NCBI RefSeq assembly: GCF_000443995.1
Contig: NZ_AUMC01000006.1
Coordinates: 62,001-126,000 of the forward strand
Source: Bacteriovorax sp. BAL6_X
GTDB taxonomy: Bacteria; Bdellovibrionota; Bacteriovoracia; Bacteriovoracales; Bacteriovoracaceae
DNA length: 64,000 nt
Direction: 5' to 3'
In this document: one piece after another, positions 28,881-45,343 of the stretch
Position numbering within the stretch: position 1 is the stretch's first letter
Layout of the letters: each line of letters begins with the position of its first letter
Position numbers and translations under genes: made by a program
Notes under the pieces: model-generated
The model's input: only the letters and a program-made list of their open reading frames with translations
Databases searched by the model: none
Told to the model about the DNA's origin: nothing

Positions 28881-29577
28881 TCTACAGGGAATCTCACCAT
28901 ACGTTATCATAAGCGCAGCTCTTACAATGGGCCTTGTTGCTAATTTCCACTGCGTGGGGATGTGTGGCGGAATTACCATGGCCGTCTCAAAGTCCTTTAG
29001 TCAAAATATGTCCTACCAGGTAGGAAGGCTTTTGGGCTACATGGCCACAGCACTGGTTATTCCAGTGCTTGGCTTTACAATCTTAGATATCAAATCAAAC
29101 CCATATCTTATGCTATTTTCAGGTTTAAGTATTGGTTTAATCTTAATTTGGATGGGGCTTAAAAGACTTTTTAAATTCTCAAATTTCAAATTTGCTCAAA
29201 TAGTTTCTCAAAAATTACACAACTTGAATGCCAAGCTTTGGCCAAAGATTTCAAAGAAAGTTGGAAATAAACCTCACCTCTTTAATTTTTCAATTGGGAG
29301 CATCAGTGTTCTTCTTCCATGTGGGCTTTTATGGGCAATGTTAGCACTAGCGATAAGTGCGGCCTCCCCTGTACTAGCGGCACTCTTTGTCTTCTTCTTT
29401 TGGCTAGGAACACTTCCTGGGCTTCTCCTTGGGCCAACTGCCATTAGAAGGATAAAATTCCCAAGCAGAATTCAAGCTGGTGTCCCTTACTTATTTTTAA
29501 TTATTGGAACTGCTACAATCGTCTACCGCGTGTATATGATGTGGAGTCCAGCGCCAGGAGCGCCAACATGTCACTAA
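28864..29577 (+). CDS. TauE/SafE-DsbD-like membrane protein of cbb3 cluster
   Basis: A 237-residue membrane protein with about six helices (sulfite exporter TauE/SafE or DsbD_2 family). The motif NFHCVGMCGGITMAV near residues 24-38 (two Cys in helix 1) is typical of members next to ccoG, where they are thought to help copper delivery. I chose the TTG at 28864 because GAGG sits nine bases before it; an ATG at 28834 extends the frame by ten basic codons and overlaps ccoG more. A second conserved piece is SVLLPCGLLWAMLALAISA. It overlaps the next small ORF by 10 bases. Confidence 0.82.
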   Translation: MDQLSSLQGISPYVIISAALTMGLVANFHCVGMCGGITMAVSKSFSQNMSYQVGRLLGYMATALVIPVLGFTILDIKSNPYLMLFSGLSIGLILIWMGLKRLFKFSNFKFAQIVSQKLHNLNAKLWPKISKKVGNKPHLFNFSIGSISVLLPCGLLWAMLALAISAASPVLAALFVFFFWLGTLPGLLLGPTAIRRIKFPSRIQAGVPYLFLIIGTATIVYRVYMMWSPAPGAPTCH

Positions 29578-29702
29578 AGAAAATGATAACTAAATTTTTT
29601 CAAGATCCAGAGTTCTATGCATTTAACTTTTTGCTCTTCACTGTGATCATCCTCTTTCCTTGCCTACTCGTTGCTTTAACAGTTAAGTACTGGTCTTGGT
29701 AA
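29568..29702 (+). CDS. 44-residue membrane protein at end of cbb3 operon
   Basis: ATG at 29568 overlaps the preceding stop and has AGGAG eight bases upstream. The translation starts MSLKKMITKFFQDPEFYAFN and has a single hydrophobic helix (LLFTVIILFPCLLVALTV) and a short aromatic tail (KYWSW). No family is recognised. Its position suggests a small accessory subunit or assembly factor of the cbb3 oxidase; the tail falls just before a palindromic repeat. Confidence 0.6.
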   Translation: MSLKKMITKFFQDPEFYAFNFLLFTVIILFPCLLVALTVKYWSW

Positions 29703-29705
29703 GAG

Positions 29706-29793
29706 GGTGCCATGCTCCTTTGGTTTCGCATCTGCTAAATACGAAAGTACAAAGAGGTTATTTAGCAGGTGCGAAACCAAAGGTGCATGGCAC
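29706..29793. repeat. REPIN-like palindromic repeat, copy 1
   Basis: Left arm 29707-29741 pairs with right arm 29759-29793 at 33 of 35 positions around a 17-base loop. Each end carries a small REP-like hairpin; the right one is GGTGC-ATG-GCAC. It differs from copy 2 by a single base over 87. The right end lies 2 bases from the stop codon of the giant lipoprotein gene, so its transcript ends in this hairpin. Confidence 0.9.
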
Positions 29794-29795
29794 GC

Positions 29796-32700
29796 TTACG
29801 GAATAACTGTATAATCAACGCTACCAACTCCACCATCACGACCAGCATCAACACCAAGTCCACCAGAAGCATCAGCAAGTCCAAGCCAATTATTCGTTCC
29901 ACAATTTACATGAATACGGCCACCACCGCCACCTGATCCGCGATAGCCAGTTGTATTGGATCCACCAATTGTTGATATATTTCCACTGCCATCACAAGTA
30001 AGCCCTTTTACGTAAACCGACCCTCCGGCACCAGAACCACCTGTTCCACCGGTAGAGTTTCCGTTAACACCATTAGCATCAACAGATGCTGCAATATTAA
30101 CATTTGCATCTGAAACTAACCAAATTACACCACCTCCGGCACCACCACTATAGTCACCATCATCATCACTTCCACCACCTGAGCCAGCAGTATTAGGCTC
30201 GGTAGCACTACCATATGTAACTCCACTATTAGCACAATATCCATTACCACCAGCACCAGCGTGCCCACCTGCACCAGCAGGGTTATCACCACTTGAACAA
30301 GCAACACCACCGGCCGTTCCATAACCATTATGACCTAGACGCCCTGGCAGCTCCCCTTTTCCAAGTGAAGAGATTGGAGCATTCACATTAATATCACCGA
30401 CAGCGTAGACGTCTGGAAGTCCCGCTTCAACAGCTCCATCAAAAGTGACAACACCACCTGAATGGATTTGAGTAATATCTTTACTTGCAAAAATTAAACT
30501 AGAATTTGCTGTTGAGAAATTCCCATTAACATTAAAACCTACATCTGTATTATTTCCATAAACTCTAAGAGTCATAGCTGTATCAAGAATAAAGTTTCCG
30601 GCACCTGTAAAGCTTTGCACACCACCTAGTGTTAGGTCGTTACTAACAGTACAAGTTGAACCAAAGCCACCCGTTGTACAAATTGAATCCTGGTCCATTA
30701 ATGAAACATAGAATGAGCCCTCATCAATTCCAAGGTCATTATTTTTCATATCGATTGCTCCACCATATTGATAGACGCCACTAATATCTGTCATGGTAAT
30801 AGCAATTCGACCCGCGCCACCGTAACCACTTGAAGACCCACTTGCAGAACCACCTTGAGCGGCCATTGAACCATTTCCGGTAATTGAACCGGTATTGATC
30901 CATATAGATCCACCAGAACCACCACTAGATCGATCGCCATTATTTTCTCCATCGCCACCATTTGATAAAATTGATCCTGTAAAATTAGTTAAATTTGAAA
31001 TACTAAATTTAACAGCACCGCCTCCATCTCCACCAGCAGCATTAGTTTCTCGTCCACCACCAGAGCCTAAGTCAGTTGGAGCAGTTTCATCTCCATATAG
31101 ATTTCCCCAAGTATTGGAACTATAGCCTTGGCCGCCAATACTTCCATAGCTAGCACCACCACCAGGATTATTTCCACCACTAGAGTCTTTACCTCCACCA
31201 GGGCCTGATGTACTTGTATATCCTTTCTCTGAGACATCAACTGTTCCAGCAAGATCGAGATTTGTTGCAATAAAATCAGCAAGATTAACCTTCATTGTGG
31301 CACCGGCCTCAATCGTAGCATCTCCAGAAATATCAAATGTATACTTATCACGATTTTGTGATTGAATCGTTGCTCCAGATTTAACAAGAAGGTCACCAGT
31401 CACTGTAATATTTGTTGTACTATCAAAAAGATAGACATCATTATTTAACGTTAAATTCCCTGCAAAGAGATCACTCGGAAGCCACTTAACATTGTTAATT
31501 TCACAAGTCGTAGCACTTGTTCCAACATCACAGAATTCATCTAATGTTGTATAGGTTAGATTTAAAGTACCAGAATCACCGGGATGAGTTGAAGCTCCAG
31601 GCCCATAATAGAACATTCCGGAGAATGTATTAGTTGAAGTTGTCATATCAATTGATAATCGACCTCCAGATCCAGATCCAGCACCACGCCCTCCCGAGTC
31701 ACCACCTTTGGCCTGAATACTTCCAGTCCCAGTAAAGCTTGTATTGGCCGTAATCCAAATGGAACCACCTGCACCACCACCAGCAGCGTAAATACTTCCA
31801 CCTGCACCAGCATTGGCATCTGCCTTAATCTCACCATCAATAGTTACAGAGTCTGCAATAATTTTAATGGCACCACCACCAGTACCACCACGATAGTTCC
31901 CTGAAGACCCACCACCAGAGCCAAAAGTGACTGGAGCTGTTAAGCTACCATAAGGACTGTTTCCACCAGCAGTTGTTGTTGCATTTTCACCATTTCCACC
32001 ATTTCCACCGTGCGCTCCACCTCCTGCTTCATCATTGCCATTAGTGAGTCCGGGAGAAGGGCCAAAACCTTCTTCCAGACGACTTCTAGCACCATAGTAC
32101 CCTAGTCCTACAGCATTTATTTGACCACCTGACTGAAGATCAAAAGCAGAGGTTTCAAGAAGTGAAAGGTTTGCATTAATTGATGATCCATTCTCAATTG
32201 TAATTGCCGTATCTGCCGAAATAGAAATTGAACGAAGATATTCTGTATAAGAAATGCTTGAACCTGTTTGAAGGCTTAGACTTCCCGTTAAATCAATTGA
32301 GAAATTCCCATTATGACCTTGAATTGCAAGTCCGGCACTTGGAGATAGAATAAGATTTGTTCCGGTAAGAACAATATTATTCCCGAGTGGCTTTGTTGCA
32401 GCAATCGTACATGTTGTTGAAAAATCCCCAGTATCACAAATTGCATTATTATTAGAAAGCCCTAAATGAAATGTTCCAGGACCACCGTGTTTACCGCTAG
32501 AGCCACCTTGGGTATTTACTGTACCTGTTAGGTTATAAGTACTACCAGTAAGATCGATTGAGAGCCTACCACCTGAACCACTACCACTTCCATAGTTATA
32601 AATCTTACCTTCTCCCCCTGAAACAAAGATATCTCCATTACCAACTATTGAATTGAGCGCTTGAATCCAAACAGAACCACCGGCACCACCACCAGAGGCA

Positions 32701-35700
32701 TAAATAGAAGTTGCAGCTCCATCATTTCCCTGAGCAAGTATATTTCCATTTAGGATAATATCATTGGCCACAATCTTAATGACACCTCCACCATTACCAC
32801 CAGAAACATTTTTAGATGCTCCACCACCAGAACCATAATCCACAGGATTTGTTTCACTACCATAAGGAGATTGTCCACCAAGCGTCAATGAGCCTTCTCC
32901 ATTACCACCAACAGAGGCATGAGCACCACCACCAGCTTCGTCTGTATTATTTGAAAGTCCAGGAGAGATTCCAAGTCCATCTTGGTAGCCAATTCCTGCT
33001 CCAAGATACCCAAGCCCTTTTGCATTGAGGCTTGATCCTGTTTGCAACTCAAGAGTCTGCGCTTCTAGATTTTTTAGATTAGCTAGAATAGTTGCATTTG
33101 TTTCTAATGTCACATTTCCATCTGCAAGGAGTTCAATACTGCGAGCATTGGCAAGGTATGTGATACTAGAGTTTGGTTTAAGAGTTAAGTTGCCAGTTAG
33201 ATCAAGTGCAACTCCAGGGTTTAGGCCATCAACAGAAAGTGAGACACTATCTGCAATTTCTAAGTTATTTGCATTAATTGTATAATTTGCACCAATTGTT
33301 TTATTTTGATTAATAAAGCAAGTTGAAACGAGATCGCCACTATCACAAATCGCTGCAGGATTTGCTAGAGCTAAATAAAACGTTCCATCACCGGCCCTTT
33401 TCTTTCCAAGCCCACCTGTCGTTAAAACACTTCCTGAAAAGTTATATGAAGAACCATTAAACTCAATAGCAACGCGTCCACCGGAACCACTTCCTGCTCC
33501 ATAATTATAAGTTTTACCGACACCTCCTAGTGCAGAAATCGGTCCAGTTCCAGAAAAAGAATTACTTATTTGAAGCCAGATGGAACCACCAGCTCCACCA
33601 CCTGCTGCATAAATAGAACTAGATGCCCCATCAGTACCATTAGCAGTTAGCGAGCCATTAACTGTTAGGTTATCTGCAATAATTTTAATGGCGCCACCGC
33701 CATCTCCACCATCTCGCCCATATGATGCGCCAGCACTTGATCCGTACTCTATAGGTGCACTTGCGACACCATAAGTGACGCTTCCACCTGTCGTTGATCC
33801 ACCTTCTCCGTTAGCACCAACAGATGCGTGTCCAGCACCACCCGACTCGTCACTACCATTGCCCATACCTGGAGAAGGGCCTTTTCCATCTTCACCACCA
33901 TCACGGCCGCCAGTGTAACCTCGGCCATTAAGATTAATAGCACCACCAGATTGAATATCAATATTTGTCGCATTAAGTTCTGATAAATTGGCCGCTAATG
34001 TTGCGCCAGATTCAATCACAAGATCATTTCCAATATCAAGCTCGGCACTAGTTGCATCTAGGGTTTGAATAAGTGCACCACTTTGAAGAGTTAAATTTCC
34101 TGAAATCGTATATGTTACGTTCGAAATTAAAGTTTGTGTATCATTAATAAAACATGTAGTTAGAACATCTCCACCACCACTACAAATTGGATAAATATTA
34201 GGAATATTTACATTTAAAGTACCATCGGCAACACCACGTCCAGCAAGTTGAATAATACTTGTAGCAACTGTTGCTTGGTTAGCTATTATAGAGACCCTAC
34301 CTCCTGCACCGTTTCCGCCAGAATTCGTATGACCAGAATCACCACCTGTTGCAGTAATTGTTGCTTGCAAAATTAAATTGTCGGCAGAAAGCCAAATTGA
34401 GCCACCGGCACCACCACCTGAAATATCAGAACTCTCCTGTCCATTACCACCATTAGCAGATATTGTTCCTGAAATATCTAAAGTATTTGTCACACTTAAC
34501 TTAACGGCACCACCACCGCTACCACCGATACGTGAACCACCAGCACCACCACCTGAGCCATAGTCGACAGGGGAGCTAATTGAACCGTATGCAGGAGTTC
34601 CGGCCGTACCAGCATTACCATTGAACCCATCAGTTGCGTGACCACCGCCACCACCGTTATCATCTGTTCCAATACCACCAGCAGGGCCTCCACCGTTGCC
34701 CATCGCACGGCCACCAAAGTAACCCTTATAATTTACATTTATAGAACCAGAGATTGTTGCGTTTGAAATAGTTGAATCTGAAATATTAGCGTTTAATGTC
34801 CCGGCCATAGTAAAATTATTAGCAACAATATTGCTTATGGCCGTCATTGCATCCTTTGATAAAACACCACCTGAAGCAATCGTAAAATCACCCGCAGCAT
34901 TGTTAAAGGCAAAGTCTGAATCAAGCCCCCTGATACTTAGGTTTCCAGTGGTATCAATTGTTAAGTTACCACTTGTAATAATCGTATCACCACCAATAAC
35001 TTTGGAAGTATTGATAATACATGTTGAAGAAAAGTTTCCACTATCACAAAGTTGATCATTACTTGCAAGAGCTAAGTAGAAGCTACCATCAGAGGCATGT
35101 GTTCCGACACTTCCACCTGAAACACCAATCGCACCATTGAATGTATAAACACCAGAGTTTTGATAAATTGCAAGACGTCCAGCAGAGCCAGCTCCAGTCC
35201 CTTGTGCACCAGAAACTGCTCCAGCTGAACCACCATTTACAGAAATCGTTCCGCTTCCCGTAATTGTGGTTTGAGAAGTAATCCACAGTGACCCACCTGA
35301 GCCACCTCCACCTTGGTCACAACAAGATTGAACACCAGTTCCACCTTGAGCAAGAATATTTCCATCGATATTTAAATTAGTCGCAATAATTTTTACGGCA
35401 CCACCACCGGCCCCTCCTGATTGAGCATCACCAGCTCCACCACCAGAACCAAAATCGACAGGTTCAGTTCTTGAACCGTAAATAGTTGTTCCACCACTAG
35501 AGCGTCCATTACCGCCTGGGCCGGCATGGCCAGCACCTCCAGGATCAGCACTAGAGCTAGCATGTCCAAAACCAGCAGAGGGACCTGCTCCATTGGCCGC
35601 TCCACTTGCTCCTCCTGCATATCCTTTACTTGAAACATCAATATTACCACCAGCCTGAATATCAAGTGTTGTGGTACTTAATAGAGTTAGGTTTGCTGAG

Positions 35701-37412
35701 ATCTCTCCACCAGATTCAATCGTCGTGCTCCCATCAACCTGCATAATAATTTTTTCAACTGCATTTGAAGAAATATCACCACCATTTTGAATCACAAGAT
35801 TACCTGGGATATAAATGACTGTAGCATCGGCCATCGTTTGAAGATCATTTACATAACATGTTGTATTGACATCACCACCACCAGAACAAGTTAGGCTCGT
35901 TCCAGAAGATGAGATTGTGGCCGTTGTAAATGTTGTACTCTGCTGGCCAATCGTATTATTTGAAGTGTCGATATAGCAAACTGTTACGCTATATTGAGTT
36001 GAAGGATCAAGTGAAGTAATAGATTGGGAAAGATTAGTATTTCCAAAATCAACACCTGCGCTACAATCGATTGGTGCCGTTGTTCCACTTGCAATTTGAT
36101 ATTTAAAAGTTTGAAGATTATTCGTGTTAATAACTGCATAACTAAGATCAATATCGTAGCTATTAATTGTATCGACATTTAGAGAATGTAAGTAGCTTGA
36201 AGTTTTTGAGAAGTTTTTAGATTCTGGGCCTGAAATATTTCCTGCACTATCTGTAACTGTCGCACTTACCGTTACTGTACCATCGGCTTGAGAACTAAAG
36301 TCAAAGCTATCACTCCAATTACCTCCCGTACAGGCAGTTGACTTGGTAACAACATTTCCACTTAAGGTAACATTACCATCTTCAGAACATGTTCCAGATA
36401 AAGTTGCACTAGGGCCTAAGACTTCACCTGCAGAATTTGTAATGGTCACACTTGGAATTGAAGTATCATAATTAACGGTGGCACTGACAGGATTATCACT
36501 GATATAGTCACCTGTTGTGGCCGTCCAAACATAAACTGTTCTTGGCCCATCGGCACCGGCCGAAAAAGTAAAATCAGAAGGCTCTGTCGTCACCCAACTT
36601 TCACCTGCACAAGTAGAAGTGTCGGCCGGTTTAGTAGTTTGAGTTTCAGATAAACACCACATAGTTGCATAAGTATCATTTCCAACACTAAGCCCAACTG
36701 TTAAATCGTTTGAATCATTTGACGACATCGTAAGAGTTGGATCAGGCATCGAAACATTCTTTGTCAGTGTAATTGTTTCTTGAGCAGAAGAATTCCCTGC
36801 AATATCTGTGTAGACAACATCAAAATCTAAATTTCCATTCGCAATTGCTGACGTATCGACATCAACACTCCACACTCCCCCAGAACAAGTCGTTGTAGCA
36901 TTTACTGAATTTGTTAACTCAACCTCTCCACCATCTTCACTACAGGTTCCACTAAGTGTAAAACTTGTTTGATTCGATTCATCAATAACGGTAGTAGGAG
37001 GTGTTGAAATGGCCGTTGTTGGTATAACGGTGTCAAGTTCAATTGTTCCAACAATTGGGTCTTCAGAGATTTCATCAGCACTATTAGCTGTCCAAACATA
37101 GAGGTCACGACTTCCTTCACCAGGTGTAAATGTATAAGTTGCAGGAGGTGTCGTTGTCCAAGCACCACCATTACAAGTTACAGTATCCGAAGGTTGAGTT
37201 GTTTGAGTCTCGGAAATACAATATTTTATCGCCCCACTAGTGTTTGCGATATTAATGCCAACAGTTAAGTCATTACTAAGTTCCTCACTACTTGAGTCAG
37301 TATCTAAGAGTGAAACTGTCGGTATTGTAATACTTCCACCATCAAAGATAGAATACTTGATCTTCGAACAGGAGCTAAAAGCTAATACAACTAAAAGAAA
37401 AAGAATATTCAT
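29796..37412 (-). CDS. Giant glycine-rich surface lipoprotein with Ig-like modules
   Basis: A 2,538-residue protein from the ATG at 37412; an upstream TTG 36 bases away adds MSNENYLTGLIS with no signal. The start gives a lipoprotein-like signal (MNILFLLVVLAFSSCSK), though the lipobox (AFSSC) is imperfect. Residues 20-270 hold two copies of a Cys-bearing module (YCISETQTTQPSDT / WCLSETQTTKPADT) alternating with bacterial Ig-like segments (SGTCSEDGG, FSQADGTVTVSATV-like). A fibronectin-III-like piece follows. The rest is seven tandem units of about 280-300 residues, each with a Cys pair (ICDSGDFSTTC-like), a beta-helix-like stretch, and Gly-rich parts such as GGGAGGSIW. This suggests an extended surface adhesin. 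It is flanked by two palindromic repeats. Confidence 0.88.
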   Translation of the reverse strand: MNILFLLVVLAFSSCSKIKYSIFDGGSITIPTVSLLDTDSSSEELSNDLTVGINIANTSGAIKYCISETQTTQPSDTVTCNGGAWTTTPPATYTFTPGEGSRDLYVWTANSADEISEDPIVGTIELDTVIPTTAISTPPTTVIDESNQTSFTLSGTCSEDGGEVELTNSVNATTTCSGGVWSVDVDTSAIANGNLDFDVVYTDIAGNSSAQETITLTKNVSMPDPTLTMSSNDSNDLTVGLSVGNDTYATMWCLSETQTTKPADTSTCAGESWVTTEPSDFTFSAGADGPRTVYVWTATTGDYISDNPVSATVNYDTSIPSVTITNSAGEVLGPSATLSGTCSEDGNVTLSGNVVTKSTACTGGNWSDSFDFSSQADGTVTVSATVTDSAGNISGPESKNFSKTSSYLHSLNVDTINSYDIDLSYAVINTNNLQTFKYQIASGTTAPIDCSAGVDFGNTNLSQSITSLDPSTQYSVTVCYIDTSNNTIGQQSTTFTTATISSSGTSLTCSGGGDVNTTCYVNDLQTMADATVIYIPGNLVIQNGGDISSNAVEKIIMQVDGSTTIESGGEISANLTLLSTTTLDIQAGGNIDVSSKGYAGGASGAANGAGPSAGFGHASSSADPGGAGHAGPGGNGRSSGGTTIYGSRTEPVDFGSGGGAGDAQSGGAGGGAVKIIATNLNIDGNILAQGGTGVQSCCDQGGGGSGGSLWITSQTTITGSGTISVNGGSAGAVSGAQGTGAGSAGRLAIYQNSGVYTFNGAIGVSGGSVGTHASDGSFYLALASNDQLCDSGNFSSTCIINTSKVIGGDTIITSGNLTIDTTGNLSIRGLDSDFAFNNAAGDFTIASGGVLSKDAMTAISNIVANNFTMAGTLNANISDSTISNATISGSINVNYKGYFGGRAMGNGGGPAGGIGTDDNGGGGGHATDGFNGNAGTAGTPAYGSISSPVDYGSGGGAGGSRIGGSGGGAVKLSVTNTLDISGTISANGGNGQESSDISGGGAGGSIWLSADNLILQATITATGGDSGHTNSGGNGAGGRVSIIANQATVATSIIQLAGRGVADGTLNVNIPNIYPICSGGGDVLTTCFINDTQTLISNVTYTISGNLTLQSGALIQTLDATSAELDIGNDLVIESGATLAANLSELNATNIDIQSGGAINLNGRGYTGGRDGGEDGKGPSPGMGNGSDESGGAGHASVGANGEGGSTTGGSVTYGVASAPIEYGSSAGASYGRDGGDGGGAIKIIADNLTVNGSLTANGTDGASSSIYAAGGGAGGSIWLQISNSFSGTGPISALGGVGKTYNYGAGSGSGGRVAIEFNGSSYNFSGSVLTTGGLGKKRAGDGTFYLALANPAAICDSGDLVSTCFINQNKTIGANYTINANNLEIADSVSLSVDGLNPGVALDLTGNLTLKPNSSITYLANARSIELLADGNVTLETNATILANLKNLEAQTLELQTGSSLNAKGLGYLGAGIGYQDGLGISPGLSNNTDEAGGGAHASVGGNGEGSLTLGGQSPYGSETNPVDYGSGGGASKNVSGGNGGGVIKIVANDIILNGNILAQGNDGAATSIYASGGGAGGSVWIQALNSIVGNGDIFVSGGEGKIYNYGSGSGSGGRLSIDLTGSTYNLTGTVNTQGGSSGKHGGPGTFHLGLSNNNAICDTGDFSTTCTIAATKPLGNNIVLTGTNLILSPSAGLAIQGHNGNFSIDLTGSLSLQTGSSISYTEYLRSISISADTAITIENGSSINANLSLLETSAFDLQSGGQINAVGLGYYGARSRLEEGFGPSPGLTNGNDEAGGGAHGGNGGNGENATTTAGGNSPYGSLTAPVTFGSGGGSSGNYRGGTGGGAIKIIADSVTIDGEIKADANAGAGGSIYAAGGGAGGSIWITANTSFTGTGSIQAKGGDSGGRGAGSGSGGRLSIDMTTSTNTFSGMFYYGPGASTHPGDSGTLNLTYTTLDEFCDVGTSATTCEINNVKWLPSDLFAGNLTLNNDVYLFDSTTNITVTGDLLVKSGATIQSQNRDKYTFDISGDATIEAGATMKVNLADFIATNLDLAGTVDVSEKGYTSTSGPGGGKDSSGGNNPGGGASYGSIGGQGYSSNTWGNLYGDETAPTDLGSGGGRETNAAGGDGGGAVKFSISNLTNFTGSILSNGGDGENNGDRSSGGSGGSIWINTGSITGNGSMAAQGGSASGSSSGYGGAGRIAITMTDISGVYQYGGAIDMKNNDLGIDEGSFYVSLMDQDSICTTGGFGSTCTVSNDLTLGGVQSFTGAGNFILDTAMTLRVYGNNTDVGFNVNGNFSTANSSLIFASKDITQIHSGGVVTFDGAVEAGLPDVYAVGDINVNAPISSLGKGELPGRLGHNGYGTAGGVACSSGDNPAGAGGHAGAGGNGYCANSGVTYGSATEPNTAGSGGGSDDDGDYSGGAGGGVIWLVSDANVNIAASVDANGVNGNSTGGTGGSGAGGSVYVKGLTCDGSGNISTIGGSNTTGYRGSGGGGGRIHVNCGTNNWLGLADASGGLGVDAGRDGGVGSVDYTVIP
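29800..35895 (-). repeat. Seven tandem coding repeats in giant lipoprotein
   Basis: Unit starts, recognised by the CDSG/CSGGG Cys motif, lie near 35890, 35050, 34190, 33350, 32440, 31535 and 30685, spacing 830-910 bases. Each unit carries GxGYxG, GPSPG-like, YGS-x-x-P-x-x-x-GSGGG, GGGAxKI and GGSIW elements. The order is conserved but sequence identity is moderate. Such repeats can expand or contract by recombination. Confidence 0.85.
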
Positions 37413-37638
37413 CGATATCAAACCTGTTAAATAATTTTCGTTACTCAAACAAGTTTATCGACATAAAGTTAATTTTCTTAACAATTTTTAATATTTAGCG
37501 AGGTTAACTAAAGAGACCATTTACAAAACTAAGTAATATTAAAGGCTTACAAATGTAATCTATTGAGAGTTCAAATAACGGCCATCGACCTGATTTAGTG
37601 TCAAAGATTTGCAAACTGCCCAGCCTGGGTGCCACCTA

Positions 37639-37727
37639 GGTGCCATGCTCCTTTGGTTTCGCATCTGCTAAATACGAAAGTACAAAGAGATTATTTAGCA
37701 GGTGCGAAACCAAAGGTGCATGGCACC
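37639..37727. repeat. REPIN-like palindromic repeat, copy 2
   Basis: GGTGCCATGC at 37639 begins, and GCATGGCACC ending at 37727 closes, an 89-base palindrome with a 17-base loop. It is 86/87 identical to copy 1 and in the same orientation. Its right end lies one base from the stop codon of the 37729-38196 gene. An extra GGTGCC at 37628-37633 just left of it may be a partial remnant. Confidence 0.9.
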
Positions 37728-37728
37728 C

Positions 37729-38196
37729 TTATTTACAGTTACGCATTCGCTGAAGTAGCTCGCTATCTTGTTCTTGAATTCGAGGTCTTAGGTATTCAAC
37801 AATAGAAGAGTTTTCTTGTAGGATACGAACTAAGCGGCATAAGAAGACATTATCCTCGGCACTTTCAACAATTGACCAACCATCAACAACATTATTTGTC
37901 TCGTAGATAAATTTGAAAAAAAGCTCTTTATACTCAAGTTTTACATTCTTACCGGCCTGAGCTACTAATTGCTCACCCAATGCCTTGTCATGAACAGAAA
38001 ATCCCCAAGTCAGTCGATCCCCACTACCAAGATCAATTGTTCCCTCATATGTTTTAAAGAAGACACCTTTCTTTGTAATACGCACTAACTTTCCAGAACG
38101 AGTCCCATCAGATTTCGGATAATTTAGAATCCCCCAACCAAGAAGACCTGCAATAATGGCCAGAATAAAAAGTGTGAAATATATTTTCTTCTTCAA
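37729..38196 (-). CDS. Conserved single-membrane-helix protein
   Basis: A 155-residue protein with an N-terminal helix (KIYFTLFILAIIAGLLGWGI), then SDGTRSGKLVRITKKGVFFK and TYEGTIDL. The pattern SxGxRxGxL-x-K-x-x-x-KGxxFKT-x-EG recurs in small membrane proteins of Bacteroidota that databases sometimes mislabel as 6-phosphogluconate dehydrogenase; there is no dehydrogenase domain here. The C-terminal 40 residues with two Cys are additional. Function unknown. It ends at palindromic repeat copy 2. Confidence 0.7.
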   Translation of the reverse strand: MKKKIYFTLFILAIIAGLLGWGILNYPKSDGTRSGKLVRITKKGVFFKTYEGTIDLGSGDRLTWGFSVHDKALGEQLVAQAGKNVKLEYKELFFKFIYETNNVVDGWSIVESAEDNVFLCRLVRILQENSSIVEYLRPRIQEQDSELLQRMRNCK

Positions 38197-38352
38197 GTGA
38201 ACAACCTCGTTTAATAATTGATGTCTCTATTGTAGCCATTTACATCATTACTTGTAAAAACTTAATCATATTAACGCTTTTTTATACCTCTTAAGTTTTA
38301 TATGGTGCCTGTGTGCGTTAAATTTCTACAAATACAAAGAGCGAGGCTAGAT

Positions 38353-39678
38353 GTGTTCGACTTCATCGATTTAACAGATACTCAGGCCGTTATTCCAATC
38401 CTAGGCCTATGCCTACTGTTATGCCTGGTGGTAGCTCGACTTACTAAATTCATTGGAATCCCTAAGGTAAGTGGCTTTATTATGCTTGGAATTATTTTAG
38501 GGCCATATGTGACTGGCATTATCACTCATGAATTTCTAGAGAAAACTAATTACCTCTCTGATCTTGCCATGGGGCTTATCCTCTTCAATATTGGTGGTGA
38601 GTTTAATAAGTACCTTTTGCGTCGTCTAAGTAACGAGCTCATTAAAGAGACCCACATTAAAGTTTTTCTCATGTTTCTTATCAGCAGCACCCTCTTTGCG
38701 GCCTGTTTATTTATATTTAGTGGGCTCTCTGCCGCCAATATACTAATTATATCCATCATGCTTGGAATAATAAGTATCGAAGCAGCGCCACCTACAACAG
38801 TCCTTGTTATGAAAGAATATAATACACATGGACCAATAACTGACGCCATAATGATCCACCTTGCAGTAGTTACAGGGCTAACTATTGTTGGTAGCTTATT
38901 CTTTACTTCAATCTTTCAAGCGACGGGACTTTGGCCCTCCTCAGTTTCTTCTTATCAAGCGATCCTTGCCATGGCCAAGGAAGTATTTGGCTCTATTGCA
39001 ATTGGAGTTGCTCTTGGGCTTCTTTTGACATGGCTTGAAAATTTTGAAAATAAGATTGGTAACTTCCTCTTTTCAATTCTTACTATGATTCTCTTTTCCC
39101 AAACCCTTGCCTATTTTTTAAAATTGAATGTTCTACTAATTTCACTAGTTCTTGGGTTTACAGTGACTCAGGCATCTTCGAAAGGAAGACTCATTCACAC
39201 AACAGTAAGAGATATTGGAAGTTCACTTTATGCAATCTTCTTCGTGTATGCTGGTACACATATAAATATTGCAGGACTAATTTCTGAAAATGCGCTCTTT
39301 GTAATAATGTATATTGTTGTTCGAACACTATCTATCTTTGTGGCCCATCGATACTTTGCCAAAAGAGTAACAAGCAATAATTACAACACCTTAGGTCATT
39401 GCCTCTACTCACACGCTGGGACGGCCATTGCTGTTGCCATGACTATCCAAAAGATCCCCCACGTCACAAGTGCAATTATTTTTCAAACCATAATTTCCAG
39501 TATATTTATCTTTGAAATAGCAGGTCCTCTTATCCTTAAGGAAGCACTAAAACGCAGTGGCGAGGTATCTCAAGAGTCTTTAAACGATGTTCAATTTAAT
39601 TATGGACAAGATCGCCGTTCAATTTTCAAAATAACTAAAGACTTTATCTCGAACAGCCTTTCAGGACTAAGAAAATAA
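38353..39678 (+). CDS. CPA2-type cation:proton antiporter
   Basis: A membrane protein of about 441 residues with some 12 helices, in the monovalent cation:proton antiporter-2 (KefB/NapA-like) family. I chose the GTG at 38353 because GAGG lies six bases before it; an ATG at 38302 adds 17 residues without support. Family features are LGLCLLLCLVVARLTKFIGI, PKVSGFIMLGIILGP, and a D-x-x-M-G-L-I-L-F pattern (LSDLAMGLILFNIGGEFN). No C-terminal TrkA or kinase domain is attached. It would exchange Na+ or K+ for H+ across the inner membrane. The following lipid-kinase-like gene starts 37 bases on. Confidence 0.85.
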   Translation: MFDFIDLTDTQAVIPILGLCLLLCLVVARLTKFIGIPKVSGFIMLGIILGPYVTGIITHEFLEKTNYLSDLAMGLILFNIGGEFNKYLLRRLSNELIKETHIKVFLMFLISSTLFAACLFIFSGLSAANILIISIMLGIISIEAAPPTTVLVMKEYNTHGPITDAIMIHLAVVTGLTIVGSLFFTSIFQATGLWPSSVSSYQAILAMAKEVFGSIAIGVALGLLLTWLENFENKIGNFLFSILTMILFSQTLAYFLKLNVLLISLVLGFTVTQASSKGRLIHTTVRDIGSSLYAIFFVYAGTHINIAGLISENALFVIMYIVVRTLSIFVAHRYFAKRVTSNNYNTLGHCLYSHAGTAIAVAMTIQKIPHVTSAIIFQTIISSIFIFEIAGPLILKEALKRSGEVSQESLNDVQFNYGQDRRSIFKITKDFISNSLSGLRK

Positions 39679-39715
39679 TTTTGTCAGGATTAACAACCTG
39701 AGTTAAGATACTTAT

Positions 39716-40432
39716 ATGGATACAATAATTTCAAAGAATGAAGATAGCGATGTGCAAGCATCGACTAAAGATATAAATGAGCAAGTTTCACAAGAAGAAA
39801 ATGAAACAAAAGAAGAAATTACAAAGACAAGAAAAGACCTACATATGCCACGTAGGATCTTCCATTTTTCGATGGGTCTCATTGCAGGGATGATTTATAA
39901 GCATTTTCTGACTCACGCCCAGGCCGTACACATCCTTGGTGTTGCAACATGCGTTTTCTATATTCTTGAACAAATTAGAATCAACTACCCAGAAAATCGC
40001 TTAATGAAATTAGGAAGCCGCTACCTTTTACGTGCTGAAGAGCAACTGAAGGAATCGGCTTCAATGCCCTATCTAATGGGACTGCTTCTAACGATCTTAA
40101 CATTTCCAAAAACCATTACACTTGTTGCTGTTTTCACACTTGCAGTTTGTGATCCTTTAAGTGCCATTATTGGTATTCGCTTTGGAAAGACAAAGTTAAA
40201 AGATAACCGCTCTCTTGAGGGAACACTAGCTTTTTTAATTGCAACAGTTGTCATACACCTAATGGTTCTTCTAAGTGTCTATGAATTTAATATAAGAATT
40301 GCACTTGTAACAATATGTAGCTCACTTGTAGTGACGGCCGTCGACTTCATGGACTTTAAAATCGATGACAATCTTACGATTCCTCTATCGACAGCAGGGG
40401 CCCTTTGGTTATTTATGGCAATCTTTCTATAA
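39716..40432 (+). CDS. Polyprenol/phytol/diacylglycerol kinase-like membrane protein
   Basis: A 238-residue protein with a charged N-terminus of about 45 residues (Glu/Lys-rich, cytoplasmic) then six or seven helices. The signature CDPLSAIIGIRFGKTKLKDN, followed by RSLEGTLAF, matches the CTP-dependent dolichol kinase/phytol kinase family (D-x-x-A-x-x-x-G-x-x-x-G, then K-S-x-E-G). R-R-x-F-H at residues 44-48 (RRIFHFSMG) is another family mark. It phosphorylates an isoprenoid alcohol or diacylglycerol; which one is unknown. Confidence 0.8.
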   Translation: MDTIISKNEDSDVQASTKDINEQVSQEENETKEEITKTRKDLHMPRRIFHFSMGLIAGMIYKHFLTHAQAVHILGVATCVFYILEQIRINYPENRLMKLGSRYLLRAEEQLKESASMPYLMGLLLTILTFPKTITLVAVFTLAVCDPLSAIIGIRFGKTKLKDNRSLEGTLAFLIATVVIHLMVLLSVYEFNIRIALVTICSSLVVTAVDFMDFKIDDNLTIPLSTAGALWLFMAIFL

Positions 40433-40439
40433 CAGGATT

Positions 40440-40727
40440 CTAAAAGAATTTTAGAAATTTCTTTTTCTTAATTTGAACACGACGATAGAAGGCTTCATTC
40501 TTGGCCTCGTGCTTTATTTCCACAAGACCTTCTTTGATAAATTCATTTAGGTAGGACTCAAGCACTTCCATATTCACTTCATCAAGAAGAGTAAGATCCT
40601 CACTTTTGATTGAGATGAGGAGATTTTCCATATTCATCCACTCAAAGAATGATATATTCTCCAAGATAATTTCTTTGGCCAAATCCATATCATCATGTTG
40701 TAGGTTCTTATCGGTTTTAGAATTCAC
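40440..40727 (-). CDS. Small hypothetical protein, 95 residues
   Basis: The GTG at 40727 follows GAGGGGAATTTTAAA, which is a good ribosome binding site with a long spacer. Longer versions would overlap the start of the divergent hydrolase. The protein is acidic in front and ends very basic (RRVQIKKKKFLKFF). VNMEVLESYLNEFIKEGLVE could be the recognition part of a winged helix, but the signal is weak. A 3-base-loop hairpin (TTCTAAAA/TTTTAGAA, 40438-40456) overlaps its end. Confidence 0.55.
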   Translation of the reverse strand: MNSKTDKNLQHDDMDLAKEIILENISFFEWMNMENLLISIKSEDLTLLDEVNMEVLESYLNEFIKEGLVEIKHEAKNEAFYRRVQIKKKKFLKFF

Positions 40728-40763
40728 TTTAAAATTCCCCTCGCCCCATCTATTATAGAACAT

Positions 40764-41432
40764 ATGGAAAATAATACTAGTCGCACAAATGTTGGTACAA
40801 ATCTCCCGATTGATTCTATTGAAATGGGTAACCCTAAAGCACAAAGGACACTTTTAGTCCTCCATGGCTTTGCTCAAAATAACGAACAAATCAAAGAGAA
40901 TATTATTGATAAATTATCATCAAAAATTGTCGAAAATTTTCGTATACTCATCCCAAATGGGATATTTCCAATTCCTAAAATAAGGCCGAATCAAATTACA
41001 TATCGCTATAGTTGGTACTTCTATGATCACACAAGACAGAGTTATTATATCGACATGAATACACCTATTGAGGCCCTTGGGAATTTATTAAAAGCAAAAG
41101 CTATTGAATTTAAAAATGTAACTATCATTGGCTATTCGCAAGGAGGCTACCTTGCACCGATTATGGCCAGCTACTTGCCAGGAATCCATACTTCTATTGC
41201 AATAAATGCAAATACACGTGTCGATAAGCTTGGCGAGAACTTAAACTTTAAGCACCTTTCAATTCATAACGAAGGTGACCCTGTTGTCGAATTTAAAAAC
41301 TCTCACAATAGCTTTTTAGAACTAAGAAAGAAAATAGCTGATGCTCGATTCGAAAGCTTTGAAATTAACTCTCATGAGATTACACCAGAAAATATAAAAG
41401 TCTTGGAATCCTATCTACTAGAAATCAAATAA
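40764..41432 (+). CDS. Alpha/beta-hydrolase (carboxylesterase/phospholipase-like)
   Basis: A 222-residue alpha/beta-hydrolase. LLVLHGFAQNNEQIKENI carries the HG oxyanion motif, and IIGYSQGGYLAPIMASYLPG near residues 125-144 is the nucleophile elbow with Ser at GYSQGG. GDPVVEFKNS suits the Asp, and SHEITPENIK the catalytic His. It resembles the small carboxylesterase/lysophospholipase group and lacks a signal peptide. It is divergent from the 40440-40727 gene and no clear ribosome binding site precedes the ATG, so it may be a leaderless or weakly expressed start. Substrate unknown. Confidence 0.8.
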   Translation: MENNTSRTNVGTNLPIDSIEMGNPKAQRTLLVLHGFAQNNEQIKENIIDKLSSKIVENFRILIPNGIFPIPKIRPNQITYRYSWYFYDHTRQSYYIDMNTPIEALGNLLKAKAIEFKNVTIIGYSQGGYLAPIMASYLPGIHTSIAINANTRVDKLGENLNFKHLSIHNEGDPVVEFKNSHNSFLELRKKIADARFESFEINSHEITPENIKVLESYLLEIK

Positions 41433-42461
41433 AAGCTTTAAAAATTCTTTTCTTGAATTAATATCCACAGCACGAGATGTATTAAAGGTTACGTGCCCTT
41501 CCCCTTTATGAAATTCAATATCCCACATGGACTCTGACGAATAAGGAAGAATACTATAACGAGAGTCAACAATAGTATTGCCTTTTCCCCAGTGAAGATA
41601 GCCACTTGTAAAACTTCTAAATCTCTCATAGTCATAAGAAAACTTTTCTGACTTATAATGTTTTAAAAGATTCTCAATTTCATTATTTTTAACAATAGAT
41701 GCGCTCTCACTTTTTGGGTAGAGCTTAATCTTACCAAAAGGAATACTTTTAACGGCATAGAATCTTGCCTGATCTTGGTCAACAATAATCCCACGCCAAA
41801 CCACATTATTAAAAATCGTAGGCTTAATCATCTTGCGTTGAGTATGCTCATTAATAAGTCCCTTCGTTGTAAGAAAGTTTGTCACACGTTCTCTTTGATA
41901 GAAACCAAGAGACATGAAAGCAACGACATAGATGATTGCAGCAGTATTAAATTTTAAATTTTTCGTACGTAGGCAAAGTAGAACTAGAATAACAAGTGGA
42001 ATGGTACAAAGAGGATCTACAACAGCAACAGTATTAAGAGCAACTCTTGTTGAGGAAAGAGGCCAAAAAAGCTGAGTCCCATAATTTGTAAATGAATCCA
42101 ATGCCCCATGGGTAGCATAGGCGCAAAGAGTATAGAGATAACTCCTTTTAACGGGAACCCTAAATAGTTTAAGAAATAAACTAACAATTAAAGCTCCGAT
42201 AGGAATAAAAAAGAGCGAGTGAGTAAAGTGTCGATGAAATTGAACATGGAATAGTGGATCCGTTGATGAACGAATGAGAATATCCAGGTCAGCGGCCATT
42301 CCAGCAAGAGCACCCCAAAGAGCTATCACCTTTAAACTAGGCGCTTCTTTAACCCCTTTAGCCTCTTTTGGTTCATGCTTCTTTCTTTGTATCTTTGACT
42401 TAACCTTGGTCGCTCCTAGAGCTGCCATTGAACCAAGTACTGCCTGTGATAATGGGTCCAC
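41418..42461 (-). CDS. YdjM/DUF457-type membrane-bound metal-dependent hydrolase
   Basis: Start GTG at 42461 with GTGAGGATTTTA before it; translation then opens VDPLSQAVLG, very like the usual MDPLTHALSG start. The ORF extends four codons farther. A 347-residue integral membrane protein with several helices. The family pattern is present: GMAADLDILIR (Asp pair) and HRHFTHSLFFIPI (His-rich metal site) near residues 60-95. The C-terminal domain (about residues 210-347) is soluble and predicted to face one side of the membrane. Role unknown; the family includes LexA-binding-linked YdjM. Confidence 0.8.
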   Translation of the reverse strand: MDPLSQAVLGSMAALGATKVKSKIQRKKHEPKEAKGVKEAPSLKVIALWGALAGMAADLDILIRSSTDPLFHVQFHRHFTHSLFFIPIGALIVSLFLKLFRVPVKRSYLYTLCAYATHGALDSFTNYGTQLFWPLSSTRVALNTVAVVDPLCTIPLVILVLLCLRTKNLKFNTAAIIYVVAFMSLGFYQRERVTNFLTTKGLINEHTQRKMIKPTIFNNVVWRGIIVDQDQARFYAVKSIPFGKIKLYPKSESASIVKNNEIENLLKHYKSEKFSYDYERFRSFTSGYLHWGKGNTIVDSRYSILPYSSESMWDIEFHKGEGHVTFNTSRAVDINSRKEFLKLLFDF

Positions 42462-42509
42462 TAAAATCCTCACTTTATGTATTTACCAAGTATATGTTAC
42501 CATAATTAA

Positions 42510-43247
42510 ATGAAGTTTTTAAAAGACCAAGCACTCCTTGCTGGCATAAAAAATATTTGTCTATTGACTGGTGCCGGCATCTCTAAAGAGTCGGGGTTAA
42601 AGACTTTTCGAGACCAAAATGGACTATGGGAGAATCACGATATCTATGAAGTCGCATCCCCCTTGGCCTTTAACAATAATCCCAATTTAGTTCATGAATT
42701 CTATAATCAAAGAAGAAGGCAACTACTATCAAGTGAGGTTCACCCTAACGATGCTCACCTCGCTCTGGCCGAACTTGAAAAGTCAGGAAAATTTGAAACA
42801 ACAATAATCACTCAAAATGTCGATAACCTCCATGAGAGGTCTGGTTCAAAAAGCATCTTTCACATGCATGGTCAGCTTTTAAAAATTCGCTGTAAAAATA
42901 CTAAGAAAATCTATGAATGCAACGATGATCTTACAGTTGAAGACCGCTGTCAGTGTTGTCATACAAAGGGGAATTTAAGGCCCCATATTGTTTGGTTTGG
43001 TGAAGTTCCACTTTATCTTGACGAAATACAAGAGACTCTTCAAAAGTGTGACCTCTTCATTTCCATTGGAACATCAGGTCTTGTCTACCCTGCTGCCAAC
43101 TTTGTGGCCATCGCTAAGAGCGCTGGTGCCCACTGCATAGAGATTAATCCTCATCCAACAAATAACGCTGAACTCTTTGATGAGACCATCACAGAGGTTG
43201 CAACGCAAGGCGTACGTCACTTTGTGGAATCCATGCTTCAAACCTAG
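42510..43247 (+). CDS. cobB: Sir2-family NAD-dependent protein deacylase (CobB)
   Basis: A 245-residue sirtuin: LLTGAGISKESGLKTFRDQN (NAD-binding GAGxS...S-x-x-FRD), TQNVDNLHERSG (QN-x-D-x-L), catalytic His in HMHGQLLKIRC, and a zinc set in IRC...YEC...DRCQCC. The segment RPHIVWFGEVP is the usual R-P-x-V-V/I-x-FGE. It removes acyl groups from lysine with NAD. Soluble, cytoplasmic. It stands between a membrane hydrolase and two small secreted proteins, which tells nothing about targets. Confidence 0.93.
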   Translation: MKFLKDQALLAGIKNICLLTGAGISKESGLKTFRDQNGLWENHDIYEVASPLAFNNNPNLVHEFYNQRRRQLLSSEVHPNDAHLALAELEKSGKFETTIITQNVDNLHERSGSKSIFHMHGQLLKIRCKNTKKIYECNDDLTVEDRCQCCHTKGNLRPHIVWFGEVPLYLDEIQETLQKCDLFISIGTSGLVYPAANFVAIAKSAGAHCIEINPHPTNNAELFDETITEVATQGVRHFVESMLQT

Positions 43248-43335
43248 CGTGCAGAAATTACATATTTCATAAAATCACTTTAATTTTCGTATCCCCTTGG
43301 CTATAAGTTCTCACACAATGCTATTGGAGAGATAT

Positions 43336-43692
43336 ATGAAATCAGTGCTTTTTACGCTAGCAATGCTTTTTGCAGTTACATCTAATGCAAAAGCTTCAAG
43401 TAATATTAGAGAAATTTGTGAAAACGCTTACTATGCCACAGGCTATACTAAGCTTCATCAATATAATCTCATCGTCAACTGGGCCCGTATTTCGGATCAT
43501 GCCCTAGTTGATCTTGAGAATATTATCTACTCAGACTATTTCAAGGTTCTAGCTGAGAAAGACCTAGGTAATAACAAATCAAAATATACTTTAAAAGAAA
43601 ATGGAAAACTAAACTCATATCAATATGAAGCGGCCCTAAGTGAACTTGAAAAGATCACAGGAAATAGTGCTTCATGTGTTTATGATCTTTAA
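43336..43692 (+). CDS. Small exported protein, 118 residues
   Basis: ATG at 43336 is chosen because TTGGAGAG lies six bases before it and a signal peptide follows (MKSVLFTLAMLFAVTSNAKA); the frame extends 13 codons more without such signs. The mature part of about 98 residues has two cysteines (REICENAYYATGY; NSASCVYDL) that could form one disulfide. No known domain. The next gene starts 18 bases on and is also a small Cys-containing exported protein. Confidence 0.75.
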   Translation: MKSVLFTLAMLFAVTSNAKASSNIREICENAYYATGYTKLHQYNLIVNWARISDHALVDLENIIYSDYFKVLAEKDLGNNKSKYTLKENGKLNSYQYEAALSELEKITGNSASCVYDL

Positions 43693-43710
43693 TCGATAGA
43701 GGGAAAAAAT

Positions 43711-43986
43711 ATGAAAAAATTATTACTAGCTGCGACTCTTTTTATTTCTGTAAACGCAAGCGCAAACCAAATCAAAATTTGTGCAATGGAAGCTCAAGAA
43801 ACTTGTAAAGAGTTAACAAACAAAGAAGATTTCTACACATGTTTTAATTCAGTACGTGACTACTGTATTGATAACTACATGTACCAATCAGGTAACAAGT
43901 CTATGCCATGGTGTTTTGATGAGTGTGCACTTGTACAAGACGAAGCTCAAAGAAACCTTTGCTACGAAACTTGTACTGAAAAATAA
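43711..43986 (+). CDS. Small Cys-rich exported protein, 91 residues
   Basis: AGAGGGAAAAAATATG gives a clear start. The signal peptide is MKKLLLAATLFISVNASA. The mature protein of about 73 residues has eight cysteines in CAMEAQETC, YTCFNSVRDYC, WCFDEC and LCYETC, i.e. four likely disulfides with C-x3-C-like pairs. The layout suggests a compact helical hairpin-type disulfide protein. Function unknown. It ends at a strong terminator. Confidence 0.8.
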   Translation: MKKLLLAATLFISVNASANQIKICAMEAQETCKELTNKEDFYTCFNSVRDYCIDNYMYQSGNKSMPWCFDECALVQDEAQRNLCYETCTEK

Positions 43987-44011
43987 TTTAAATAAATATG
44001 TACAAATAAAG

Positions 44012-44038
44012 AAGGCACCTATCAGGTGCCTTTTTTAT
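44012..44038 (+). terminator. Rho-independent terminator
   Basis: Stem AAGGCACCT (44012-44020), loop ATC, stem AGGTGCCTT (44024-44032), then T's to 44036. It ends the small Cys-rich protein gene and runs directly into a half copy of the palindromic repeat. Confidence 0.9.
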
Positions 44039-44071
44039 TTAGCATATGCGAAACCAAAGGTGCATGGCACC
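44036..44071. repeat. Half copy of REPIN-like repeat
   Basis: TATTTAGCATATGCGAAACC continuing to GCATGGCACC matches the right arm of copies 1 and 2 at 34 of 36 bases. The left arm and loop are missing. It ends directly at the stop codon (CTA at 44072-44074) of the thiolase gene, as the full copies do at their genes. A single REP-type hairpin GGTGC-ATG-GCACC is kept. Confidence 0.88.
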
Positions 44072-45343
44072 CTATCTTTCAACGATAGCAACAACACCCA
44101 TCCCACCTGCAGTACAAATAGAGATAAGTCCGCGTCCACCACCTTTTTCTTGAAGCATTTTAGCAAGGCCTGCGACAATTCTTGCACCAGTTGCACCAAA
44201 TGGATGCCCAAGAGCAAGAGAGCCTCCTTTAACATTAAGCTTTGAACGATCAATAGATCCAAGGGCAGAGTCTAGGCCAAGCTTTGTTTTGCAGAATTCT
44301 TCATCTTCCCATGCTTTTAAAGTACAAAGTACTTGAGCTGCAAAAGCTTCGTGAATTTCGTAAAAGTCAAAGTCTTGTAGAGTAAGACCTGCACGTTTTA
44401 GAAGTTTAGGAACGGCGTAAACAGGGGCCATTAGAAGTCCTTCCTCGTCGATAAAGTCAACGGCCGCTGACTGACACGTTGTAAAGTAAGCTGAAACATC
44501 TAAATTGTGTTCTTTTGCATATTCTTCACTACATAAGAAAACTGCTGAAGCACCATCAGTTAGTGGTGTTGAGTTGGCCGCTGTTAAAGTTGCTTTTTCA
44601 GATTTTTCGAAAGCAGTTCTTAAAGACCCCATTTTCTCCACCGTTGTGTTAGCTCTTAGAATTCCATCACGTTCTAGGCCTTTAAATGGCACAACAAGAT
44701 CACTATAGAATCCTTCATTATATGCGCGCTCTGCATTCTGATGGGACTCCCACGCAAGTTGGTCTTGATCCTCTCGCGCAATATTCCAACGTTGGGCCAT
44801 AAGCTCACAACTTTGTCCCATTGATAGCCCTGTACGAGGCTCTTTTACAGCAGGGAAAGTAGGCTTAAGATCGGCCGGACGGATACTTAAAAGGGCCTTG
44901 ATTCGATCACCTGTTGTGCGAGCGTAATTTGCACGGCTCATGGCATCTGAGAAATTCTTAGAAAACTCAACAGGGATATCACTATTCGTATCAACACCAC
45001 CAGCGATACCACATTCAATCTGACCTGTTGCAATTTTCATAGCAATAATATTTGAGGCCTCAAGAGAGAGCCCACAAGCTTTTTGAATATCTGTAGCAGG
45101 AGTGTGAAAAGACAGCCCAGACTCAATAGTACACTCACGAGCAAGGGAGAAATCATAGGCGTGCTTACTAACTGCACCAAGAACAACCTCACCTACTTCT
45201 TGTCCCTTAAGATTCATCTTATCGACTAAACCTTTTAAAGCAGCAGTCATTAGCTCCTTATTAGAAACACCCTGATACTTTGTACCAGATCTTGCAAATG
45301 GAATACGTGATCCCGTAATAATACAAACTTTTCTTTGTTCCAT
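44072..45343 (-). CDS. Acetyl-CoA acetyltransferase / 3-ketoacyl-CoA thiolase (FadI-like)
   Basis: A 423-residue thiolase. The N-terminal nucleophile is Cys in DIQKACGLSLEASNI, and the other catalytic marks are HEAFAAQ (His), GHPFGATGARIV (His) and CTAGGMGVV (second Cys). Length and N-terminal VCIITGSRIPFARSGTKYQG suit the FadI-like group that works in beta-oxidation or acetoacetyl-CoA metabolism. AAAAGGAAAACTT precedes the ATG. It is the last gene of a minus-strand run with ABC, HD and thioesterase genes and ends at the half palindromic repeat. Confidence 0.9.
   Translation of the reverse strand: MEQRKVCIITGSRIPFARSGTKYQGVSNKELMTAALKGLVDKMNLKGQEVGEVVLGAVSKHAYDFSLARECTIESGLSFHTPATDIQKACGLSLEASNIIAMKIATGQIECGIAGGVDTNSDIPVEFSKNFSDAMSRANYARTTGDRIKALLSIRPADLKPTFPAVKEPRTGLSMGQSCELMAQRWNIAREDQDQLAWESHQNAERAYNEGFYSDLVVPFKGLERDGILRANTTVEKMGSLRTAFEKSEKATLTAANSTPLTDGASAVFLCSEEYAKEHNLDVSAYFTTCQSAAVDFIDEEGLLMAPVYAVPKLLKRAGLTLQDFDFYEIHEAFAAQVLCTLKAWEDEEFCKTKLGLDSALGSIDRSKLNVKGGSLALGHPFGATGARIVAGLAKMLQEKGGGRGLISICTAGGMGVVAIVER

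What the first reader, a model, noticed from the sequence alone, without database searches (positions are those of the whole stretch)
29706..44071. Palindromic REPIN-like element ends 0-2 bases from the stop codon of a minus-strand gene in all three copies
Copies at 29706-29793, 37639-37727 (86 of 87 bases identical) and a half copy at 44036-44071 all have the CATGGCACC end pointing at a stop codon: the giant lipoprotein (2 bases away), a membrane protein (1 base) and the thiolase (0 bases). Orientation relative to the gene is the same each time. Random insertion would rarely give this. It could be an element that targets stop codons or terminators, or a genome-wide 3'-end hairpin that defines mRNA ends. 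Only three copies are visible, so the pattern may be chance.
Basis: seen in the sequence. Interest (0 to 1): 0.78.

Follow-up and report, generated by a model that had tools for sequence, protein, structure and literature searches.

The report
Mobile hairpins parked behind stop codons
A small family of jumping DNA hairpins, which travels with its own transposase gene elsewhere in this bacterial genome, lies almost exactly behind genes' stop codons in a fixed direction, far more often than chance allows; close relatives of such elements are known, but the exact, oriented fit to the stop codon may show how they land without breaking genes.

Summary
The three window copies belong to a REP/REPIN-type family with 11 loci in the genome: solo ~33-nt units, inverted dimers (52, 88 or 141 bp), and one 770-bp element carrying a RAYT-like Y1 transposase gene. 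Orthologous transposases sit between the same ends in six further genomes. Eight of 11 elements have an end 0-3 nt from a stop codon, three of them at both ends; random intergenic insertion predicts 4.5%. In solo copies, where orientation is informative, the GGTGCC end faces a stop within 6 nt 15 times and the other end once. Element-free orthologs end at the same residue, so the stops are native. Where the element touches the stop, the stop is TAG in 14 of 15 cases, while element-free orthologs mostly have TAA. This fits insertion after "TA", with the element's first G rebuilding the stop. Most likely mechanism: strand-specific RAYT-catalysed insertion 3' of a TA(R)-like target, then selection against copies that damage genes. 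Closest known kinds are GTAG-REPs/REPINs and TIRtrons, for which stop proximity is already reported. Less expected: two unrelated families occupy the same gene's stop in two species, and element ends show repeated 13-nt duplications.

The parts
29706..29794 (.). REPIN-type inverted dimer, copy 1 (two ~35-nt units GGTGCCATGCWCCTTTGGTTTCGCANNTGCTAAATA around a 17-18 nt middle)
29796..29798 (-). stop codon TAA of the 2550-aa ORF 29796-37448 (AgmC-like partial match, below cut-off), 2 nt from GTGCC
29700..29702 (+). stop codon TAA of a possible 44-codon ORF (29568-29702) 3 nt from the left end of copy 1
   Evidence: ORF unproven
37639..37727 (.). REPIN-type inverted dimer, copy 2 (87/89 identical to copy 1)
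37626..37638 (+). imperfect reiteration of flank + element prefix (GGGTGCCACCTA) directly outside the left end of copy 2
37729..37731 (-). stop codon TAA of ORF 37729-38196, 1 nt from GGTGCC of copy 2
   Evidence: element-free orthologs end within 0-3 residues of the same C-terminus
44036..44071 (-). solo REP-type unit (half copy), GGTGCC end at the stop codon
44072..44074 (-). stop codon TAG of the thiolase gene 44072-45343; four of five element-free orthologs have TAA at the same residue
44012..44032 (-). intrinsic terminator kept directly beyond the solo unit

Best explanation
The three copies belong to a REP/REPIN-like mobile family mobilised by a RAYT-type (Y1, HUH) single-strand transposase encoded in a 770-bp member of the same family (own genome C6:335506-336275, outside the window). 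The ~33-nt unit inserts strand-specifically with its 5' GG end joined to the 3' side of a short TA(R)-like target, as IS200/IS605 elements do. Stop codons TAA and TAG supply that target at the one place where insertion leaves the protein intact; insertion after TA of the stop keeps a stop because the element's first G makes TAG. Purifying selection removes the other insertions. SHOWN: family membership, the RAYT gene between the ends, stop enrichment, orientation of solo copies, native C-termini, TAG at contact sites. INFERRED: catalysis by this RAYT, TA(R) as the target, and the shares due to targeting and to selection.
For: RAYT-like ORF (202 aa, Pfam Y1_Tnp E=1.2e-9, NCBIfam REP_Tyr_transpos 61.5 bits, below its cut-off of 80, profile hit to PDB 4er8 TnpAREP E=1.4e-8) between two ends of the family. 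Orthologous ~200-aa genes lie in ~700-890-bp elements of six more genomes, mostly with a matching end on both sides, invariant HYH and Y...NP residues. Stop adjacency 8/11 vs 4.5%. Solo copies: stop within 6 nt at the 5' end 15, at the 3' end 1, p=5e-4. Flank preference also away from stops: in G004, T/A/G at -3/-2/-1 in 12/14/16 of 16 ends. Element-free orthologs end at the same residue; contact stops TAG 14/15 against genome usage TAA 220, TAG 95, TGA 26.
Against: No cleavage or transposition data. The flank consensus is weak and differs between genomes (WR-G in the own genome, TAG in G004, AAA/CAG in G029), so TA(R) may be an average. No clean empty site from a close strain was available, so the exact target and any target duplication are unproven. 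Even a TA-weighted convergent null (24%) does not reach 8/11, so something beyond motif plus location may act. Some 'solo' copies in G023/G029 may have an unrecognised diverged partner. Stops used for copies in relatives come from raw ORFs. NCBIfam places the transposase below its RAYT cut-off.
Confidence: 0.6

Rival explanations
1. Selection only: insertion is nearly random, but in a genome that is ~93% coding with convergent spacers of median 12 nt the only harmless place is between a stop codon and the following terminator, so survivors sit there.
For: Spacers are short. In several sites the element lies between stop and terminator (106070, 132492, 253149, G004 C105). Two other RAYT-associated families (GGTACG...) in the same genome also lie near stops, 7 of ~14 elements within 4 nt.
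Against: Convergent-spacer null gives 12.6%, with TA flank 24%, against 8/11. Selection alone does not predict that solo units turn the GG end to the stop (15:1) nor the TA/TAG flank at ends far from genes.
Confidence: 0.25
2. Functional 3'-UTR element: the hairpin is kept behind stops because it regulates translation termination or mRNA stability, as proposed for E. coli REPs within 15 nt of stops.
For: Strong hairpin in RNA (-46 to -56 kcal/mol), constant orientation to the gene in solo copies. E. coli REPs within 15 nt of a stop are reported to stall ribosomes (cited in PMC12306157).
Against: Sites are not conserved: orthologs of the same genes in five sister genomes lack the element. Copy number is low, genes are unrelated, 8/11 copies cluster on one contig.
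Confidence: 0.1
3. Terminator swap: the transposase recognises the hairpin of an intrinsic terminator and exchanges it for the element, which places the element stop-to-stop between convergent genes.
For: Three elements fill the whole space between two convergent stops (91706, 335506, 621325), and some orthologs have a terminator in that place.
Against: Terminators are retained next to the element at 106070, 132492 and 253149, and the 621325 middle contains a terminator-like hairpin.
Confidence: 0.05

Closest known systems
GTAG-tagged REPs/REPINs with RAYT (REPtrons): Bertels & Rainey 2011 PMC3116915, Di Nocera 2013 PMC3733652, Quentin 2018 PMC6006769
   Same: 20-40-nt imperfect palindromes as singlets, inverted doublets and pairs flanking a RAYT gene; mainly behind genes and between convergent genes (<20 bp from both 3' ends); termini of GTAG REPs reported to provide the TAG stop to flanking ORFs
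   Different: No conserved GT[AG]G tag (only TA(R)/TAG as variable flank); few copies (11) instead of hundreds; exact 0-1 nt registration, orientation of solos and TAA-to-TAG rebuilding inferred here by comparison with orthologs
TIRtron / TIRYT (Di Nocera 2013)
   Same: RAYT-like Y1 transposase gene flanked by longer inverted repeats that also occur as a small dispersed family
   Different: Published TIRs often carry GGGGWSAS-type motifs and most TIRYTs have a C-terminal HTH and ~238 aa; here GGTGCCATGCACC ends and 202 aa, no Pfam HTH found
IS200/IS605 family
   Same: Y1/HUH chemistry; element joined 3' of a short fixed target, strand-specific (established knowledge)
   Different: Here the Y motif is Y...NP (class 2, RAYT side) rather than Y...Q, the ends form a perfect inverted dimer, and the 770-bp element holds no second gene such as tnpB
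E. coli REP/BIME near stop codons (Liang 2015, as cited in PMC12306157)
   Same: Many REPs within 15 nt of the stop, proposed translational effect
   Different: Different sequence family; here 0-3 nt and with element-free orthologs showing native stops

Membership tests
REP/REPIN (GTAG-REP) | Repeated short extragenic palindrome present as singlets and inverted doublets | tested here: met
   solo units, 52/88/141-bp dimers
REP/REPIN (GTAG-REP) | 5' GT[AG]G tetranucleotide at the foot of the hairpin | tested here: not met
   flank is WR-G, TAG in most G004 ends but no conserved G at -4 and variable elsewhere
REP/REPIN (GTAG-REP) | High copy number (>100) | tested here: not met
   11 elements in 3.23 Mb
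RAYT-flanking element (REPtron/TIRtron) | RAYT-type Y1 transposase gene flanked by copies of the repeat | tested here: met
   NCBIfam REP_Tyr_transpos 61.5 bits, below cut-off 80; Y...NP motif and HYH invariant
TIRYT subclass 2.1 | C-terminal helix-turn-helix domain, ~238 aa | tested here: inconclusive
   202 aa, no Pfam HTH found; no structure computed
REP/REPIN and IS200/IS605 | Single-strand cleavage and transfer by the cognate transposase | not testable with these tools
   needs biochemistry
IS200/IS605 | No target-site duplication, fixed short target at the left flank | tested here: inconclusive
   no direct repeats at most dimer flanks, flank preference present, no empty site from a close strain
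Intrinsic terminator | Stem followed by U-run | tested here: not met
   long hairpin without its own U-run; only the 13-nt end stem is flagged, by flanking T's

The most novel reading that the evidence does not exclude
RAYT-type single-strand transposases in this lineage use the TA(R) of stop codons as a strand-specific safe-harbour target and rebuild the stop with the element's first base, so that insertion is neutral for the upstream protein. Several unrelated RAYT families share this: a GGTACGCG element occupies the same gene's stop in G001 that a GGTGCC element occupies in G004. Their ends also undergo stepwise reiteration of 7 nt flank + 6 nt element, a by-product of cleavage or copying at the junction.
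Probability: 0.3. Interest if true: 0.75.

Novelty: new variant of a known kind. Interest (0 to 1): 0.5.

Why it matters
How REPs and REPINs choose their sites, and whether their closeness to stop codons reflects targeting, selection or function, appears unsettled in the papers read here. A low-copy family with solo, dimer and transposase-bearing forms, and sister genomes with element-free orthologs, lets these be separated. The orientation of solo copies and TAA-to-TAG at contact sites argue for a target rule. The reiterated junctions may be a trace of the insertion chemistry.

Tried and rejected
Chance: rejected by the nulls. Element brings its own stop and truncates proteins: rejected, orthologs end at the same residue. 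Intrinsic terminator: no U-run. Known RNA family: no Rfam match in the window. Target-site duplication as the cause of the junction repeats: rejected, because each end repeats its own flank. Half copies as mere decay: not favoured, because solo units recur with the same two end points in several genomes. My first count of 9/11 included the C9 element; after proper collapsing of its repeats its distances are 15 and 16 nt, so the count is 8/11. RAYT structure prediction was not run, since this gene lies outside the window and the tool admits only listed sources.

Full report
Observation. Distances to the minus-strand stops are 2 nt (to GTGCC), 1 and 0 nt. Copies 1 and 2 are inverted dimers that fold into one long hairpin (-54 and -56 kcal/mol, z about -11 to -12). 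Because they are palindromes their orientation says nothing; the half copy is different.

Family in the whole genome. The window lies at G000:C6:62001-126000 of a 3.23-Mb genome. Searches with the 89-bp element and with the right arm give 11 loci: C6 91706, 99639, 106036, 132460, 185802, 253148, 335506, 621325; C9 21391; C10 992178; C3 483204. Eight lie on C6 (20% of the genome, p = 2.6e-4). Forms: solo units of ~33 nt (R-GTGCCATGCACCTTTGGTTTCGCANNTGCTAAAT), dimers of 52, 88 and 141 bp, and a 770-bp element (C6:335506-336275) with a 202-aa ORF between two ends.

Transposase. The ORF matches Pfam Y1_Tnp (E=1.2e-9), NCBIfam REP-associated tyrosine transposase (61.5 bits, cut-off 80) and, as a family profile, PDB 4er8 TnpAREP (E=1.4e-8). 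Genes 50-57% identical, with invariant HYH and Y...NP residues, lie in ~700-890-bp elements with GGTGCC-type ends in G001, G004, G010, G029, G115 and G159. In all, 120 element ends were collected from nine genomes of the family.

Stop codons. After collapsing junction repeats, 8 of 11 own-genome elements have an end within 3 nt of an incoming stop, and three (91706, 335506, 621325) have stops at both ends (for 91706 the left stop is that of a possible 44-codon ORF). The null uses 364 kb of the same genome: 4.5% of intergenic positions, 12.6% of convergent spacers and 24% of convergent positions with a TA flank have a stop that near; both sides 0.1%, 0.8% and 2.6%. Binomial p for 8/11: 2.5e-9, 7e-6, 1e-3; for both ends 3/11: 1.6e-7, 8e-5, 3e-3. 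So chance is excluded, and location plus a TA preference explains much but not clearly all.

Orientation. Only solo units can be tested. Of 52 ends without a recognisable inverted partner within 1.1 kb, the GG (5') end has an incoming stop within 6 nt in 15 and the 3' end in 1 (which has both); p = 5e-4.

Native stops. Orthologs in sister genomes without the element end at the same residue: thiolase, FabH, the 335507, 621326 and 21392 genes, and the G004 C376:16452, C376:19747 and C91 genes. Where the element touches the stop (distance 0 or -1), the stop is TAG in 14 of 15 cases, although usage in the genome is TAA 220, TAG 95, TGA 26. Element-free orthologs of these genes mostly have TAA (335507: 4/4; thiolase 4/5; C91: 4/5; C376:16452: 2/2). 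The simplest reading is insertion after TA, the first G of the element restoring a stop. A target that is natively TAG is not excluded.

Same stop, two families. The gene whose stop carries a GGTGCC solo in G004 (C105) carries, in G001, the end of another dispersed family (TAG|GTACGCGCGTCCTTAT). The own genome has two such GGTACG families, each associated with another RAYT gene; 7 of their ~14 elements are within 4 nt of a stop.

Junction repeats. At about 15% of ends, ~7 nt of flank plus a prefix of the element (6 nt most often, otherwise 1-4, 14-15 or 20-26) are reiterated 1-5 times directly outside the complete end; the period is exactly 13 nt in most of the clear cases. Each end repeats its own flank, so this is not a target duplication. 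Bertels & Rainey describe larger tandem REPIN clusters that include flanks. The cause is open: slippage at the hairpin, or nicking ~7 nt outside the end with strand displacement.

What is known. Di Nocera 2013 (PMC3733652) reports REPs mostly behind genes, within 20 bp of both 3' ends of convergent genes, often supplying TAG to flanking ORFs, and RAYT-like genes between long inverted repeats, 'TIRtrons'. RepRanger (PMC12306157) cites ribosome stalling by E. coli REPs near stops. The present family works like these. It fails the GT[AG]G tag and the high copy number of canonical REPs, so I file it as a variant of the RAYT-associated kind, not as a GTAG-REP.

Verdict. Observation confirmed; 'element that targets stop codons' plausible and partly supported; 'genome-wide 3'-end hairpin' not supported. 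Targeting versus selection needs close strains or biochemistry.

Noticed in passing
G000:C6:336274, 621326; C9:21392, 21441; G004 C166:2426, C376:1580/18977/19747, C319; G055 C8:20990; G115 C9:110152; G159 C79: Serial partial duplications at element ends: ~7 nt of flank + element prefix, mostly with an exact 13-nt period, up to five rounds.
   Followed up: partly
L044-L047; G000:C3:395743, C8:182343, C9:207505, C10:188103, 397800, 744872, 789400: Two further dispersed ~200-220-bp element families (GGTACGTCGATACTTTT and GGTACGCGGACACTTTT ends) next to two other RAYT genes of the same genome; several ends lie 0-4 nt from stops.
   Followed up: partly
G001:C3:31795 versus G004:C105:6354: Orthologous stop codon carries ends of two different RAYT-associated families in two species.
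   Followed up: partly
window 44002-44050: The terminator beyond the solo copy has the stem GGCACC-TATCA-GGTGCC, i.e. the same hexamers as the element's ends in inverted order; possible relic of an element junction.
   Followed up: no
G000:C6: Eight of 11 copies, and the RAYT-bearing one, lie on one 656-kb contig; suggests local spread.
   Followed up: no
window 29796-37448: 2550-aa ORF with weak AgmC-like and Ig-like matches, all below cut-off.
   Followed up: no
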